This document shows positions 736 through 6,391 of a stretch of 64,000 nt of DNA, in pieces; position 1 is the stretch's first letter; each line of letters begins with the position of its first letter. The DNA comes from Polychytrium aggregatum (lineage: Eukaryota > Chytridiomycota > Chytridiomycetes > Polychytriales), in assembly GCF_025602895.1 (NCBI RefSeq), contig NW_026516218.1, positions 186,001 to 250,000 on the forward strand. The letters run 5' to 3'. The notes beneath the pieces are model-generated. The model had not been told where the DNA came from. It searched no databases and worked only from the letters and a program-made list of their open reading frames with translations. Position numbers and translations under genes: made by a program.

Positions 736-1983
736 CTACAGCCGACGTGCGGCCTGGCGATCGCCAATCGAGTTCAGGTAGCTTTTCAGAAAGACGCGCT
801 GCTTCTTGGCCAGGTCCTTGATCTTGTCAATCTCGGAATCTGTCAGGAGGAAAAGCATGCGGTTGCCCTTGCTCCGGTTGACCTTGCTGTCGAGAATGAC
901 GCCGTTCTCGGTGTCCCGGTTGTCGGTTCCGAACGAATTGGAGACAATGTGCTCGATGTCAAAGGCGTGCACGCAGCAATCGGGTGACGAAAAGGGTGCA
1001 TGCTTGGCATCGGTCGCAGAGACGGTCCACAGCCCGAGCACATCTAGAATGAGCTCAATGCCATTGGAGCACTGGATGAGATGGCCGGGGCGGGTCTTCC
1101 AGTGCTCAACGATGGTCTTCTTGACCGACTCGGGAAAGACCGGGGGGCGGTCGAGGCTCTGGATGTGGGCGTCGTTGGGCCGGTCTGGATCGAGATTGGC
1201 GCGGATGAGGAACTTGAGCACCTGGTAGGCCAGCTTGCCGCGGACCTGGGTGTCCTGCAGCCACGAGGCCATGAAGGCGGGGTCCTTGACGGACGTCAGA
1301 ATCTGCTCGATGTACTTTGCTCGCTTGTACGAGAAACTTGGGGCAACCTTGAGCGAGGCGGGAGCGGTAGGTTTCCCGTGGGTGCTGGGCGGCCGCGAGT
1401 GCGAGTGCGAGTGCGAGTGCGAGTGTGGGTGCGAGTGGGAGTCGGTGGGCGACGATGTGGGCGACGTCTTGGCCTTCTTGCGCTTGGGGCCGCTGGCATG
1501 GCGGTCGCTCGGGTCGGCATCGAGGGTGCTTGGTGGCGGACTGGGTGGCTCGGGCGAGAAGAGCGAGCTCCAAATCGGACCCAGGAAGGTCGAGAGTCCC
1601 AAAAACCCGAGGATACCAGAAGCCGCCGCATCGTCGCAGGCCGCAGTGTCGTAGAGCAGCTCGTGCAGATGATGTCCGTCAAAGACAAAGTAGCGGCGTC
1701 GGTGCGAGCTCGACGATGCCGACGACAGAAACTTGAAGCCCTGGTCGCGGGCATGGGTTTCGCTCACGCACGAGTAGGAGCGATAGAGCCCAAGGATGAC
1801 GGTCTTGTCGACGTGGACAAATTCGTAGGTATAGTTGCCGCGGCCCTTGCCAGGGTCCTTGGTGCCGGTCACGACGCTGACCCGCCGACGATCCTTCCAG
1901 ACGACGAAGAGGGTGTCCTCTCTCAGACGCTCGGAGACGAGCCCCAGGAGGGTCTGCATGGATGCGTCCATGGGTGCATCCAT
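736..1983 (-). CDS. HNH-nuclease-like protein with His-Ser repeat
   Basis: Uninterrupted frame on the minus strand. The open frame extends up to 2244, but the Met at 1983 (MDAPMDASMQTLLGL) is preferred because the 87 upstream residues are low-complexity. The C-terminal third carries FDIEHIVSNSFG, then NGVILDSKVN and NRSKGN: the spacing of an HNH (beta-beta-alpha metal) nuclease, with a His after an acidic residue and downstream Asn residues, as in DUF1524/GmrSD and Cas9-type HNH modules. The centre has a basic KRKKAKT stretch (possible nuclear signal) and an (HS)n tract at 1396-1437. The N-terminal ~170 residues match no family I recognise. Neighbours are MTD1 (convergent) and the Fanzor transposon. 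The HNH call is motif-level only; nuclease activity is inference. Confidence 0.55.
   Translation of the reverse strand: MDAPMDASMQTLLGLVSERLREDTLFVVWKDRRRVSVVTGTKDPGKGRGNYTYEFVHVDKTVILGLYRSYSCVSETHARDQGFKFLSSASSSSHRRRYFVFDGHHLHELLYDTAACDDAAASGILGFLGLSTFLGPIWSSLFSPEPPSPPPSTLDADPSDRHASGPKRKKAKTSPTSSPTDSHSHPHSHSHSHSHSRPPSTHGKPTAPASLKVAPSFSYKRAKYIEQILTSVKDPAFMASWLQDTQVRGKLAYQVLKFLIRANLDPDRPNDAHIQSLDRPPVFPESVKKTIVEHWKTRPGHLIQCSNGIELILDVLGLWTVSATDAKHAPFSSPDCCVHAFDIEHIVSNSFGTDNRDTENGVILDSKVNRSKGNRMLFLLTDSEIDKIKDLAKKQRVFLKSYLNSIGDRQAARRL
1396..1437. repeat. GAGTGC hexanucleotide microsatellite coding for (His-Ser)n
   Basis: Six-base tandem repeat in frame inside the HNH-like gene; on the coding strand it reads CAC TCG, giving alternating His-Ser. 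Confidence 0.9.
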
Positions 1984-2431
1984 GGGTGCGGGAGACGGTT
2001 TGGTTTGGCGCCGGTGGGTGTGGATGTGGCAGAGCGAGAGCGAGAGCCGAGGATGCGCTGCTTTTGGATCGGGAGCAGAAGCAGATCCGACAATCCTGGC
2101 AGAGACGGTGGGGTATTTGACGGCGGCTGCCAGGGAGGCGACGGCGACGGCGACGGTGCTGTGGATGTGCTTGCGGCTGGCAGGCAGGGGCTGGTGGAGA
2201 CAGAGTTTGGTCCTGTGTATGGATGGTGCGGTGCGCCCGGACATGGGCCGCCTTGGTCTGGTGTGATTTGGTCTGGCGGCGGTCTTGGCTGCAAGAGCGC
2301 TCTGGGGTTGACAGAGGGCGACGCACGAACGAAAAGGAGACGGACGGCGCTGCGTTGTTATCGTTCCTGTGGGATCGTTCCCGTGGGCGAGTGCATCGTC
2401 GATTGTGATGAGATTATGATAGGCCTCGCTA

Positions 2432-2456
2432 CACTTTATTCAGAAAAAACGGGACA
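2432..2456 (+). repeat. Terminal inverted repeat, Fanzor side
   Basis: 25 bp starting CACTTTATTC after TA at 2430-2431. The inner 13 bases (2444-2456) are the exact reverse complement of 6035-6047; the outer part is diverged. Confidence 0.8.
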
Positions 2457-2640
2457 ATATAGCCGTTTCCATGAACATGTAGTATGTGCTGTGCTTGCGT
2501 CAAGCAAAGCCACAAGAAATAAAACAGATCACTTTGGCAGCCTCCGAGTGAAGACCGCTGGTCGCTCTCCGGTCTCCACAATCGACCTGCACACTGCGAT
2601 CATGTTGCGCGCCGCATTGACGTCGCGATTCCACACTGTC
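2432..2640 (-). ncRNA. Candidate guide-scaffold (omega-like) RNA at the Fanzor 3' end
   Basis: In TnpB/Fanzor systems the guide RNA scaffold overlaps the 3' end of the nuclease gene and runs to the transposon end, with the guide taken from flanking DNA. Here the stop codon is followed by 97 nt before the terminus. In the relic at 48.5 kb the first ~50 noncoding bases (2478-2528) are about 88% identical by eye, against ~93% in the adjacent coding part, then similarity weakens until the inverted end. No secondary structure was computed. Under this model the guide would be read from bases just below 2432 on the minus strand. Boundaries are guesses. Confidence 0.35.
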
Positions 2641-4967
2641 CGGCAGCTGGGATTCTTGCAGCTCCTGACAAAGTGGGAATTCGCAACACTGGGCGCATCG
2701 AGTCCTTCCAACCGAACTGGCTCCAGGCACTTGGAGCACACTTGCGAGGTGTTGAACTCGTTCGTCGAGACTACCTTGACGCTTCCATGATGGTGATTGG
2801 GACGGCGACGGTGGTGCTCGAACTGCTCAAAGTACCGAGCAAACCGCTGCCTCCGAGGGCTGGATGCATAGCCCTTGCCCTGTCGCCATGACGCATTGCC
2901 AAAGGCGATCACCACATCGGTCCGTATCGGGGCGTGCTTCAGGACGGCCTTGCACATCCTGTCGACGGCCACTTGGCGCCTCTTGTGGCCCGTGAAGCGA
3001 TGGTGACGGGCCTTCTTGCCAAGGTGGAAGTCGAGCTGCACTCGCAGCTCCGGTCGCAGGACATGGGTGAGATGGACCTTGAAGGCCTCCGAGGACGACA
3101 CCTTGGGCGAGGGAGTGGTCGCCATCCAGGTCTCGATGCTGAGTCGATACTTCATGGTGTTGTGCCACTTGGTGTTGGACGTATGGCCACACATTTGCTG
3201 GTAGTGGCCATTGGAGAACGAGACCACCTCGTCTTGGTGGCCCGGTGCTTGGATGACCGCCGTGAAGATGGAGCCGACTCCAGGATCGATGCCAATCCAA
3301 GTGGTACGGTTGGGGTCTGGGTTGCCGATGTGGGCCTGGATGCGTTGCTCGGCAGTCGGAGGAGGCTCGATGGTCTCGGTGTGATCGGTTCGAGGCAGAA
3401 ACTTGACGAGGCCGATGGTGCATCCAATGCCATCGGTGCTGATCTCGTAGTTGAACAGCTTCTTGTCCACGTCCCGCTCTTGGAAGAGGGAACTACGCAG
3501 CTTGAAGCAACTGCGCCAGAGACGATCCTGGTTGTTGACATCGTCCTCACCTTCTTCCTTGAGCATGTCCCTGGTGAGGCCAAGGCGCTTCTTTGGACCC
3601 AGGAGTTGCCAGAGAGTGACCGTGTCGATCTTGACATACTTGGCCTTTGTAGTGCATAGAGGGACCATCGTGCACACGGCCGGAGGAGTGTCGACGGCGA
3701 GCTGCTTGAGTGCCCAGTTGATCCTGGATGCCAGCTTGTTGATCTTGGACTTGGTGGTGCCGAGCTCCGACTTGGCCGTGGTGAACCTCTTGTCGTCGGA
3801 GGGAATGCCTTGGGTAGTGAGCTCGTCCAGCTTGGCCTGGCGCTGCAGCTCGGTGACTCGGAGGGCGGGCATGTCACAGTCGATCCACTTGTGGACATTG
3901 TCGACCATCTTGTCTCGGGCGAGGATTCTCACATGGTGTGAGAGGCGATGGAGGGCCCGGAAGCGGTCCTGGTCGCTGCTGTACTGAAACTCGTCCAGGA
4001 TGTGGCCAAAGTCCGGGTAGAGGAACTCGAGATCGGCCTTGGGTGGAGTCTGCCCTGGTTTCTCGAAGAGCTCGAGACAGGCCTCGATGGCTTCGTGCTT
4101 ATGCTTGTTGGCTGGGAAGACGGCAGCGCAGAAGCGGCGAAGGAGTCTCCAATAAGCCAGGTCGAGGTGGGTGGTGCAGTTGGTGGCATAGGCATTGACA
4201 GCCAGTGTGAGAAGCTGACTGTGAGCACCATCAGGCAGACGAGGGGCCGGAGGCAGGTCTGCGTGCCGAGTGGTCTGGTAGTCGCGAAAGGAAGCGACCA
4301 GATGCTCGTTGTATTTCTCATTGTCCCCGGTCGGGGAGAGGGCACCGGCCTGGACGATCTTGAAGCATTGGCGAATGAAAGCAGGGGTGGACTTGGAGAT
4401 GACGGGGACGGGAAGATCCTGCTCGATGCACCGGAGGATGTGCAGGTTGAGCAGCCTGGATGCCTCGAACTCGATCTGGGTCATGGCCTCGACGGTGGCC
4501 TGGATCTTGTCGCGGAGAGCGGGATTGAGACAACAGCCATCCATCGTCTGCTTGAAGCAGCTGAACTGAGGGGCGGATGACCTTCCATCCACGAGTGGGA
4601 CGACAGAACTCTTGAGGGGCCGGTATTTGGGACACTTGTTGGTGTTGCAACGTTCGTGATCGGTGCCATCGCACTGGCGACATCGCTTGCCAGTACTCGA
4701 GGAAGTAGATGGACCAGGCTCGGTGGGATCGACATCCATTGGATCTGCAGAAGCAGTGGTGGTGAGCGACGGAGCAACAGACGAACAAGCATGCGTGGGA
4801 TCAGAATACGAACCAGAGACAGGCTCCGACTGTGACTTGGCTTTCTTGGGCCTGGGTGGCCGAGGCTGGCCATCACCGGCACCCTTGCGCTTCGGAGGCA
4901 TGGGGGCACAGGATGCTGGATGCCTGCCAGTGGTACTGGTCAGAGCAGAGACTTTTTTATCGTGCAA
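2529..4967 (-). CDS. Fanzor (eukaryotic TnpB-like) RNA-guided nuclease
   Basis: Intact 812-codon frame. The Met at residue 23 (4901), followed by PPKRKG and PRPPRPKKAKS (nuclear-localisation-like), may be the true start. Residues ~25-100 are Ser/Pro-rich, followed by a Cys cluster (CRQCDGTDHERC); ~120-540 is an alpha-helical region of the type that forms the RNA/target lobe in this family. RuvC-I is WIGIDPGVGS with Asp561; RuvC-II region is VVIAFGNASW near residue 686, where Fanzors have a rearranged catalytic Glu; a zinc ribbon uses C744-x2-C747 and C770-x4-C775; RuvC-III is NRDVNAARN with Asp782. All expected core elements are present with no stop or frameshift, so the gene looks functional. 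It has its own TATA box at 5029-5034. Fanzor family identity is high-confidence; active cleavage is not demonstrated by sequence. Confidence 0.9.
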   Translation of the reverse strand: MHDKKVSALTSTTGRHPASCAPMPPKRKGAGDGQPRPPRPKKAKSQSEPVSGSYSDPTHACSSVAPSLTTTASADPMDVDPTEPGPSTSSSTGKRCRQCDGTDHERCNTNKCPKYRPLKSSVVPLVDGRSSAPQFSCFKQTMDGCCLNPALRDKIQATVEAMTQIEFEASRLLNLHILRCIEQDLPVPVISKSTPAFIRQCFKIVQAGALSPTGDNEKYNEHLVASFRDYQTTRHADLPPAPRLPDGAHSQLLTLAVNAYATNCTTHLDLAYWRLLRRFCAAVFPANKHKHEAIEACLELFEKPGQTPPKADLEFLYPDFGHILDEFQYSSDQDRFRALHRLSHHVRILARDKMVDNVHKWIDCDMPALRVTELQRQAKLDELTTQGIPSDDKRFTTAKSELGTTKSKINKLASRINWALKQLAVDTPPAVCTMVPLCTTKAKYVKIDTVTLWQLLGPKKRLGLTRDMLKEEGEDDVNNQDRLWRSCFKLRSSLFQERDVDKKLFNYEISTDGIGCTIGLVKFLPRTDHTETIEPPPTAEQRIQAHIGNPDPNRTTWIGIDPGVGSIFTAVIQAPGHQDEVVSFSNGHYQQMCGHTSNTKWHNTMKYRLSIETWMATTPSPKVSSSEAFKVHLTHVLRPELRVQLDFHLGKKARHHRFTGHKRRQVAVDRMCKAVLKHAPIRTDVVIAFGNASWRQGKGYASSPRRQRFARYFEQFEHHRRRPNHHHGSVKVVSTNEFNTSQVCSKCLEPVRLEGLDAPSVANSHFVRSCKNPSCRTVWNRDVNAARNMIAVCRSIVETGERPAVFTRRLPK

Positions 4968-5028
4968 TGGCGCGATGATCAGATCAAGGCGAGATGAGGG
5001 AAGAAAGCAGCAGGACGAAGGTGTGGCA

Positions 5029-5034
5029 TTTATA
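5029..5034 (-). promoter_or_regulatory. TATA box of the Fanzor gene
   Basis: TATAAA on the minus strand inside the transposon, in the gap between the transposase stop and the Fanzor start, 62 bases upstream of the first Met. It implies a separate Fanzor transcript rather than read-through from the transposase. Confidence 0.55.
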
Positions 5035-5103
5035 CCCGAGAGCAGGAGCCCGTCTTTGCGGGCTGGTTGGGGAAGTGACCCTGTTCAAAAATCGCCGAGA
5101 GGT

Positions 5104-5976
5104 TCAAGCCAGGGATTTGAGCGTGAAAATGGCGGCGTGATTGGGGAGCTCAACTCCAAATTGGAGGAACTCAACCCAAAATGATGGTGACTCAACCCCA
5201 AAGAAGTTCTCGATGGGATTGTAGTCGGGTGAAGCAGGTGGGGTGAAGATCACTGACCATCCTCGGCGCTCGATGCAGTCCAGGACAGCCCTTGTCTTGT
5301 GCATGCTGACATTGTCCATCACAACCACAGAGTCGTCTGGGAAGGTCGCTCGCTCAAAGAACTCGACCATCGAGTGTGTCTTGAATGATGTGGGGATGTA
5401 CATGCGATGCAGCACACCAGAGTGGTTGATGGCAAATGCAGCCGAGACAGACTTGTGTTTCATGTGATTGCGCTGGCGAAGAGGAGCACCCTTCGGCGAG
5501 TATCCGTAGAGAGAGAAAATGGATCTCCTGATCCCTGTCTCGTCGACAAAAACGAATCGCCGCAGGTCAATGGAGCGGGCCTGGTCCCTGAACTGTGCCA
5601 CTCGCTCATCCAGTCGCTTGGACTTGTAGAGGTGTGTTGCCCTCTTGTGTGAGAGACCTGCTCGGTGGATGGCAGTGTAGCAGAGTGAGAGTGATACTTT
5701 CCTCTGGAGGATGGACTCGAGCTTGCACCGCAACACAGGACCAGTCTGGAACGGGTCCTGTTCAATCAGGGTGCGAATGACTGGACATGCCTGCTCGAAG
5801 AAAGTGGATCTGCGAGCTGGGACCCGGGATGGGTCATCCAGCTTGCATCCTCGGTGCCATCGATGGATGGTGCTCTTGGATACACTGAATATGGAGGCGA
5901 CCTTACGCAGGCTATGGATGAGGGCGTAGCATCGCAATGCGGCGGTGCGAAAGTCGGATGTGTGGCGAATGGTCAT
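5104..5976 (-). CDS. Tc1/mariner (IS630-related) DD34E transposase, C-terminus atypical
   Basis: 290 residues. N-terminal helix-turn-helix (SLRKVASIFSVSKSTIHRW, residues ~22-40) recognises transposon ends in this family. Catalytic triad: FVDETG with Asp145, VVMDNVSMHK with Asp221, and SPDYNPIENFF with Glu256; exactly 34 residues separate Asp221 and Glu256 (DD34E). After Glu256 homologues normally continue for several dozen residues, but here the frame runs into three imperfect ~21 bp repeats each containing GTTGAG (about 5135-5200) and stops 34 residues later. It may be slightly C-terminally altered. Neighbour: Fanzor, same strand, 136 bases downstream. Function: cut-and-paste transposition at TA sites. 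Confidence 0.85.
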   Translation of the reverse strand: MTIRHTSDFRTAALRCYALIHSLRKVASIFSVSKSTIHRWHRGCKLDDPSRVPARRSTFFEQACPVIRTLIEQDPFQTGPVLRCKLESILQRKVSLSLCYTAIHRAGLSHKRATHLYKSKRLDERVAQFRDQARSIDLRRFVFVDETGIRRSIFSLYGYSPKGAPLRQRNHMKHKSVSAAFAINHSGVLHRMYIPTSFKTHSMVEFFERATFPDDSVVVMDNVSMHKTRAVLDCIERRGWSVIFTPPASPDYNPIENFFGVESPSFWVEFLQFGVELPNHAAIFTLKSLA

Positions 5977-6034
5977 GGCCAGCGCGCGATAACATTGGGT
6001 AACAAAATATTCGATGAATGGTCAAATACCCGGG

Positions 6035-6060
6035 TGTCCCGTTTTTTATTGGATTGCCTG
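6035..6060 (-). repeat. Terminal inverted repeat, transposase side
   Basis: 26 bp; read inward on the minus strand it begins CAGGCAATCC and ends in the shared 13-mer. TA follows at 6061-6062. The 58 bases between this end and the transposase start (5977-6034) are the only 5' leader of that gene inside the element. Confidence 0.8.
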
Positions 6061-6391
6061 TAACGACGATCAGCCACCAGATTGTATTCAAGACCGAGCT
6101 TCCAGAGGAAGCGATTGCGAACAGAAGGAGCCGCTGCACGAGCGAGACCCCCGATTAGCGAAACAAAAAGGCGCCGTGCACCACCCATTGCCAGAGACGA
6201 GATGGAACGGATGCGCTTTTTGTCGGAACAACAGATAGAAATCAATAAAAATGTGCAGCCACCAAAAAGGAGTCTGGGAGCGAGTGTATCGGGCCAACGC
6301 AACATCATACACCCGGAAGCTCCACCACTCCACCTCCACCACTCTAGATCACCGTTGCAGCCTCGGAGAGCGAGAGACAGCCTCCCTCTCT

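What the first reader, a model, noticed from the sequence alone, without database searches (positions are those of the whole stretch)
2432..6060. Fanzor RNA-guided nuclease packaged in a complete Tc1/mariner-type transposon
Seen: one TA-flanked element with 25/26 bp inverted ends holds an intact Fanzor frame (Asp561, Asp782, four zinc-ribbon Cys) and a DD34E transposase, both on the minus strand. Known: Fanzors are TnpB descendants found in eukaryotic transposons, and some have been shown to cut DNA with a guide RNA. Inferred: this copy pairs cut-and-paste movement with nuclease-driven retention or homing, and both genes look recent enough to be active.
Basis: partly seen in the sequence, partly recalled or inferred. 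Interest (0 to 1): 0.92.

Follow-up and report, generated by a model that had tools for sequence, protein, structure and literature searches.

The report
Chytrid jumping gene carrying RNA-guided nuclease
A chytrid fungus carries about 250 copies of a mobile element that holds both a cut-and-paste enzyme and a Fanzor RNA-guided nuclease, and these copies appear to keep overwriting one another, which makes the unknown job of Fanzors in nature testable.

Summary
TA-[2432..6060]-TA is one element with a Fanzor gene and an IS630/Tc1-mariner DD34E transposase between shared ends. It holds 247 Fanzor and 251 transposase motif copies, plus short derivatives that keep the Fanzor-side end.

One correction: this copy's transposase lost its C-terminus; the family's full form has 310 aa, so the window copy probably moves only in trans. 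The Fanzor is intact (790 aa, start at 4901), and the family's Fanzor is under purifying selection.

Two results go beyond the finding. Insertion sites read 5'-TTA in 204 of 214 ends, against 12% of TAs in the window, on the Fanzor-upstream side only, where a TAM would lie. At all 10 long-element sites compared in two haplotypes, flanks are near-identical (5/5451 differences) but interiors differ (643 of about 30,600), once full-length against MITE: copy-to-copy conversion, unless assembly mixing explains it.

Fanzor plus mariner transposase in one element was already known (PMC3627910), so this is a new member. RNA-guided retention is plausible, not shown.

The parts
2430..2431 (.). TA target-site duplication, Fanzor-3' side; the filled junction reads GTG|TA on the minus strand
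   Evidence: TA in 47 of 50 3' flanks
2410..2429 (-). predicted guide region (first 20 nt of flank after TA)
   Evidence: inference from the SpuFz1 layout, PMC10432273 section 7; no RNA data
2432..2456 (-). Fanzor-side inverted end, 25 nt; perfect core 2444-2456
2432..2597 (-). putative guide-RNA (wRNA/fRNA) segment: 97-nt 3' UTR plus the last Fanzor codons; the least that is kept in the 19 MITE copies examined
   Evidence: pi 0.025 after the stop against 0.051 in the 5' end and 0.072-0.078 at fourfold sites; predicted stem-loops z -1.9 to -2.2, no covariation
2529..4901 (-). Fanzor CDS, 790 aa (MPPKRKG... start); D539 (DPG), E715, D760, C722 C725 C748 C753
   Evidence: start set by stops upstream of it in other copies
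5104..5976 (-). IS630/Tc1-mariner transposase, 290 aa, D145 D221 E256 present, family C-terminus lost
5166..5193 (-). junction region of the net ~110-bp deletion that removes the transposase C-terminus (type B element)
6035..6060 (-). transposase-side inverted end, 26 nt; perfect core 6035-6047
6061..6063 (-). TA duplication plus the conserved T: 5'-TTA on the minus strand = predicted TAM
   Evidence: T at -3 in 44 of 49 flanks and 204 of 214 ends genome-wide

Best explanation
Shown: shared ends and TA duplication, 247 Fanzor and 251 transposase motif copies, mostly open and selected Fanzor frames among the copies read, short derivatives that keep the Fanzor-side end, a one-sided 5'-TTA insertion motif, and different element content in two haplotypes behind near-identical flanks. 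Inferred: the window copy is moved in trans by copies with the 310-aa transposase. The element's 3' end is transcribed as a guide RNA whose guide is the flanking host DNA. TTA is the TAM, present in the empty site and absent at the filled 3' junction (GTG|TA). After the transposase excises a copy, Fanzor cuts the empty site, and the gap is refilled by copying an element, often switching to another of the ~250 templates. That would hold sites filled while scrambling their content.
For: Ends, TSD and family. Copy numbers: (reversed-pattern controls 0). Fanzor signature (DPG; Glu six residues before the CxxC) matches the definition in passages of PMC10711439. Selection: dN/dS 0.286 for Fanzor (24 intact copies) and 0.204 for transposase residues 1-259 (16 copies); spectrum-corrected N/S 0.36, 217 nonsynonymous variants against a neutral 95% range of 300-336. 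TTA. Precedent: the SpuFz1 TAM is CATA, and its elements carry a conserved CA just upstream of the 5' end, ghost elements included (PMC10432273). Content differences: 643 in about 30,600 element positions against 5 in 5451 flank positions, 10 pairs (test). L060/L087: 60 of 61 differing columns lie between 564 and 1568. All 19 MITE copies examined (14 sites) keep at least 166 nt of the 3' end.
Against: No expression or cleavage data. T at -3 may be the transposase's own preference: MITEs without Fanzor show it too (13 of 15 by my tally of the list, one site counted twice). Gene conversion among repeats needs no Fanzor. LD is so short that assembly mixing must be considered. Stem-loops of the 3' end show no compensatory change, and one pair is broken in 9 of 33 rows. 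No empty allele was found, so retention after excision was never seen. Predicted guides hit no other held target. No fold comparison was possible. The sequence match to SpuFz1 is weak (E 0.49 and 0.11).
Confidence: 0.55

Rival explanations
1. Fanzor is a passenger or weak helper. The transposase alone prefers (W)TTA targets, and ordinary ectopic gene conversion among ~250 similar copies causes the differences between haplotypes.
For: The motif is about as strong in MITEs without Fanzor (13 of 15 flanks, tallied from the list, one site twice). Conversion among dispersed repeats is common in general (recalled). Short MITE pairs differ less (4 of 5 identical), as tract length alone would predict.
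Against: A pure passenger should not keep N/S at 0.36, and the Fanzor's dN/dS of 0.286 is not far from the transposase's 0.204. Tc1/mariner target preferences are usually palindromic (recalled), while here the 3' side shows no significant mirror A (10 of 50, p 0.08).
Confidence: 0.3
2. The within-element haplotype differences and the very short LD are an assembly artefact: consensus mixing among repeat copies.
For: LD falls to the permutation baseline within 25-40 bp, which is extreme for conversion tracts. In 4 of the 7 complete pairs the two haplotypes differ by 2.9-3.2%, against a mean of 4.0% between unrelated sites. How the assembly was made is not known to me.
Against: Structural differences at one site (3601 against 307 bp, 1110 against 3634, 3498 against 3634, 3736 against 3653) are hard to make by base mixing. 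L060/L087 has one differing column outside 564-1568. LD declines smoothly from 0.64 at 1 bp. No N runs in the DNA held.
Confidence: 0.25
3. The family is an old, dying one; open frames are survivors and nothing is active now.
For: The 15 sites compared in two haplotypes are filled in both; mean divergence between sites 4.0%; only 9 of 27 transposases read have the 310-aa form.
Against: 25 of 31 read loci, chosen as best-scoring, keep an open Fanzor frame; TSDs nearly intact; the N/S ratio is low among variants shared by copies (0.26) as well as among singletons (0.45).
Confidence: 0.2

Closest known systems
Fanzor1-Mariner elements PGv-1 and PUl-1 (Bao & Jurka 2013, PMC3627910; passages read)
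   Same: Mariner-type transposase and Fanzor1 in one element, TA duplications.
   Different: PGv-1 is described there as single-copy and viral, with a third (GIY-YIG) protein; here about 250 copies in a fungal genome and two genes.
Spu-1 / SpuFz1 of Spizellomyces punctatus (PMC10432273; section 7 and passages read)
   Same: Chytrid; conserved bases just upstream of the 5' end that belong to the TAM (CA there, T here, before TA); 'ghost' elements that keep the guide-RNA end.
   Different: No transposase was found inside Spu-1 ends; 42 loci with full (19) or partial Fz genes there; TAM CATA there, TTA predicted here.
GtFz1 of Guillardia theta (PMC10432273, PMC11423790; passages)
   Same: TAM begins TTA (TTAAN / TTAA).
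   Different: Only the TAM is compared, and ours is predicted; no sequence comparison made.
IS630 family transposases (NCBIfam NF033545)
   Same: The 310-aa transposase of locus L059 scores 119.1 bits against a cut-off of 100; TA duplication.
   Different: Eukaryotic, carries a Fanzor, outer parts of the two ends differ from each other; the window's own 290-aa form was not run against this model.

Membership tests
Tc1/mariner-IS630 | TA target-site duplication | tested here: met
   47 of 49 5' flanks, 47 of 50 3' flanks
Tc1/mariner-IS630 | terminal inverted repeats | tested here: met
   13-bp perfect core in 25/26-nt imperfect ends; 743 genomic 13-mers
Tc1/mariner-IS630 | DD34E/D catalytic triad in a DDE_3 domain | tested here: met
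   D145, D221, E256; PF13358 E 6.1e-22
Tc1/mariner-IS630 | full-length transposase in the window copy | tested here: not met
   C-terminus replaced; family form 310 aa, database homologue P0005 shares its RA(M/I)RFW end
Fanzor | RuvC D-E-D with DPG motif and the Glu six residues before the first zinc-ribbon Cys | tested here: met
   D539-P-G, E715 then FNTSQV then C722, D760, against the definition in passages of PMC10711439
Fanzor | D-X(125,275)-[TS][TS]XX-C4 zinc finger-X(5,50)-RD | tested here: met
   D539, T718 S719 QV C722 C725 C748 C753, RD at 759-760; motif from the PMC3627910 abstract
Fanzor | Fanzor1 rather than Fanzor2 | tested here: inconclusive
   Carried by a DDE element and long (790 aa); C-terminal match to SpuFz1 only E 0.11; no tree, no fold
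OMEGA RNA-guided nuclease system | guide RNA transcribed from the element's 3' end into flank | not testable with these tools
   No RNA data; the segment is kept in the 19 MITE copies examined and less diverse than the 5' end; no covariation
OMEGA RNA-guided nuclease system | TAM next to the target, lost on insertion | tested here: inconclusive
   TTA in 204 of 214 ends, filled 3' junction GTG|TA; cleavage not tested
Nuclease-driven retention/homing | empty sites refilled by templated repair | tested here: inconclusive
   Sites compared in two haplotypes filled in both, contents different; no empty allele among the 40 of 559 candidates scored

The most novel reading that the evidence does not exclude
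An RNA-guided refill system runs in a eukaryotic genome. Breaks made at TTA sites by transposase excision and Fanzor cutting are repaired by copying from any of ~250 dispersed elements, so every site stays occupied while its content is continually overwritten, and the copies recombine almost like a sexual population (LD gone within 25-40 bp). MITEs that keep only the guide-RNA end would use the Fanzor in trans.
Probability: 0.2. Interest if true: 0.88.

Novelty: new member of a known kind. Interest (0 to 1): 0.62.

Why it matters
The biological role of Fanzors is stated to be unknown (PMC10432273, passages). This genome offers about 250 natural copies with transposase and Fanzor together, deletion derivatives without Fanzor, a candidate TAM readable from insertion sites, and paired haplotypes in which element turnover can be measured against near-identical flanks. 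That makes retention, conversion and trans-use of the nuclease testable in one chytrid.

Tried and rejected
Self-targeting guides (elements nested in other copies) as the cause of breaks inside elements: the 49 unique predicted guides gave no TTA-preceded match (16 nt, up to 2 mismatches) in the DNA held at that point, and only a few 12-nt near-matches inside elements, none after TTA. Compensatory change in the 3' stem-loops: none. Rfam: no match in 2200-6300 at E up to 1. Viral relatives: 42 pattern matches in viral contigs, none confirmed; phage records none. Protein relatives of the whole Fanzor: none at E 1e-3; with residues 440-790, 4 hits, two of them P. aggregatum gene models and two proteins from unnamed contigs at 30-32%. 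Fanzor1/2 tree not built: no named references could be fetched. Fold not predicted: the tool was off. L071 as a fresh deletion of its allele L055: its ends are closer to L055 (3 mismatches, 2 gap bases) than to any other MITE, which speaks for that; its junction is the one seen at seven other MITE sites, which speaks for conversion of the middle only. I favour conversion but this is not settled.
Full report
What is there. The element lies at TA-[2432..6060]-TA. Its two ends, 25 and 26 nt, share a perfect 13-mer and differ outside it. The minus strand encodes a transposase (5976-5104) and then a Fanzor (4901-2529). The listed 812-aa Fanzor frame starts at a TTG; the true start is most likely M23, because many other copies have an in-frame stop before it and keep MPPK (30 of 31 loci; L053 has lost the ATG). 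The Fanzor protein is 790 aa with a basic N-terminus, PF07282, DPG at D539, E715 six residues before C722, C725, C748, C753, and D760. These are the features that PMC10711439 gives for Fanzors (passages), and they fit the motif in PMC3627910 (passages).

The transposase. The 290-aa window protein has the DDE triad but not the family's C-terminus. Of 27 loci whose transposase I translated, 9 have a 310-aa form ending IVKHQYRK...RAMRFWG. That C-terminus is shared in part by the database homologue P0005, and the L059 form passes the IS630 cut-off (119.1 bits against 100). The window element is a 'type B' derivative with a net deletion of about 110 bp. It is best read as moved in trans.

The genome. 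Two of the four hits are named Polychytrium aggregatum gene models on contigs of 1,154,014 and 438,330 bases, the lengths of C375 and C323 here. The window is C68:186001-250000 of a 64.7-Mb assembly. C363 looks colinear with C68: four transposase sites recur at an offset near 17 kb. The left flank of the window element matches it with 4 mismatches and a few small indels over 2431 bp. So the assembly seems to hold both haplotypes at least in part, and copy numbers include both.

Copy number. The 13-mer occurs 743 times (reversed control 2). A 44-mer at the Fanzor RuvC-I motif occurs 247 times and a 30-mer at transposase D145 251 times, each with up to 3 mismatches. The Fanzor-side end with TA occurs 276 times. 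The protein search scored 56 Fanzor copies of 1319 first-look candidates, all at 94% identity or more. Of 31 loci read in full (the window's own among them), 25 keep an open Fanzor frame (24, plus L063 with 788 aa); apart from L063 these were the best-scoring ones, so the share is biased upward.

Selection. Among 24 intact Fanzors mean dN/dS is 0.286; for transposase residues 1-259 in 16 copies it is 0.204. With the mutation spectrum taken from fourfold sites, the Fanzor shows 217 nonsynonymous variants against a neutral 95% range of 300-336, N/S 0.36 of neutral. Choosing intact copies biases this a little. Fanzor function has probably mattered to the spread of these elements.

Insertion motif. 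In 49 5' flanks (duplicates removed, except that the pair L070/L080 remained) the base before the TA is T in 44; -4 is A or T in 37. In the rest of the window T precedes 274 of 2220 TAs, both strands. Genome-wide, 204 ends read TTAC and 10 read (A/C/G)TAC before one exact family of end sequences (haplotype duplicates counted, mutated ends not). The other side shows no significant mirror preference (A at +3 in 10 of 50, p 0.08). SpuFz1 elements have a conserved CA before their 5' end and a CATA TAM (PMC10432273), so the natural reading here is a TTA or WTTA TAM. On insertion the 3' junction becomes GTG|TA, which lacks the T and so would protect the filled site. The alternative, a one-sided preference of the transposase, is not excluded; MITEs without Fanzor show the T too (13 of 15 flanks by my tally).

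Short derivatives. All 19 MITE copies examined (14 sites; the 17 places plus L007 and L027) keep about 97 bp of the transposase-side end and at least 166 bp of the Fanzor-side end; two larger derivatives (L064, L065) keep about 663 and 446-447. The retained 3' piece is the last Fanzor codons plus the 98-nt UTR, where Fanzor guide RNAs lie. Ghost elements with working guide RNAs are known from S. punctatus (PMC10432273). Diversity is lower there (0.025) than in the 5' end (0.051); the way I picked ends favours intact 3' ends, so this is soft. RNA folds are modestly stable without covariation.

Content differences between haplotypes. I compared 15 sites present twice with near-identical flanks. 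Five were found by flank or motif overlap among long loci or MITEs already held (the window/C363, L033/L051, L044/L052, L039/L056, L055/L071), five were fetched out of the second places (two of these, L038 and L064, because coordinates hinted at a different size), and five are MITE pairs. At all 10 sites with a long element in at least one haplotype the interiors differ: 643 mismatches in about 30,600 positions (for L033/L051 the 5' flank could not be separated; 287 bases taken off), against 5 in 5451 flank positions. I left out the 3' flank of L044/L052 (41 of 1164), which holds a piece of a second Fanzor family. Four sites differ clearly in structure: 3601 against 307 bp, 1110 against 3634, 3498 against 3634, 3736 against 3653. 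A fifth is likely from coordinates alone: the L036 site has 3735 bp on C375 and about 1.1 kb on C93. Four of five MITE pairs are identical; one has 6 mismatches. In seven pairs with both elements complete, 65-81% of differing positions have both states in at least two other copies (75 of 115, 90 of 120, 13 of 16, 70 of 107, 81 of 107, 27 of 40, 41 of 61), and the number with a private state is 26, 16, 2, 25, 22, 10, 17. In L060/L087, 60 of 61 differing columns fall between 564 and 1568, like a conversion tract; some of these lie in a badly aligned indel stretch, and another aligner counted 36 mismatches. Differences also cluster in the other pairs, but so they do in five pairs of unrelated sites. 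LD among 24 copies falls from r2 0.64 at 1 bp to baseline by 25-40 bp. This is good evidence for exchange between copies, with a caution: LD this short can also come from consensus mixing during assembly. The structural differences argue against that as the whole story.

Empty sites. A query of 33 joined flank pairs gave no continuous match; only 40 of 559 candidates were scored. Twelve of the 33 sites appeared at a second place. For seven of these I hold both copies and both are filled; for the other five, coordinates put an element end beside the flank. The L044/L052 site was not among the hits, so the list is incomplete. No empty allele was seen, but the search was not exhaustive.

How it probably works. 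Excision by a full transposase leaves a break or a rejoined TTA site; Fanzor with the flank-derived guide would cut the rejoined site; repair copies an element back, with template switching among ~250 copies. Gap repair from other genomic sites after excision is known for P elements (recalled). Every step after the sequence facts is inference.

What is known. Fanzor1 with Mariner transposase in one element is described in PMC3627910 (PGv-1, PUl-1), so the kind is known. No paper in the held library contains both 'Polychytrium' and 'Fanzor' (0 papers). None of the passages I read describes these copy numbers, a TTA motif or such haplotype differences for a Fanzor-mariner family; I read no paper whole, and subscription papers are mostly missing from the library.

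Noticed in passing
L044 and L052, about 4114-4484 on the Fanzor strand: A second, about 68% identical Fanzor-family fragment lies just beyond the element's 3' end; the aligned 3' flanks of the two haplotypes differ at 41 of 1164 positions.
   Followed up: partly
P0001 and P0002 (public gene models of P. aggregatum): Two public gene models, one named male sterility protein and one with an F-box domain (PF00646), contain Fanzor C-terminal pieces (67% and 53% identity), perhaps annotation fusions across insertions of a second Fanzor family.
   Followed up: no
L047, around 4051-4245 on the Fanzor strand: A different short element with the same 13-mer core but another 3' end sits against the Fanzor element, flanked by an 11-bp direct repeat TATTCTTCGCA.
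   Followed up: no
window 736-2244, minus strand: A 502-aa frame next to the element with a sub-threshold HNH_4 match (E 0.0011, 19.3 bits, cut-off 22) at residues 427-463.
   Followed up: no
MITEs L069, L070, L078, L080: Their deletion junction holds a 34-nt filler matching element positions 174-207 at 94%, which looks like a templated insertion left by break repair.
   Followed up: partly
contigs C68 and C363 of the genome: Two apparently colinear contigs at an offset near 17 kb share four transposase sites; at the 279-kb site the transposase match has two TGA stops in C68 and none in C363.
   Followed up: partly
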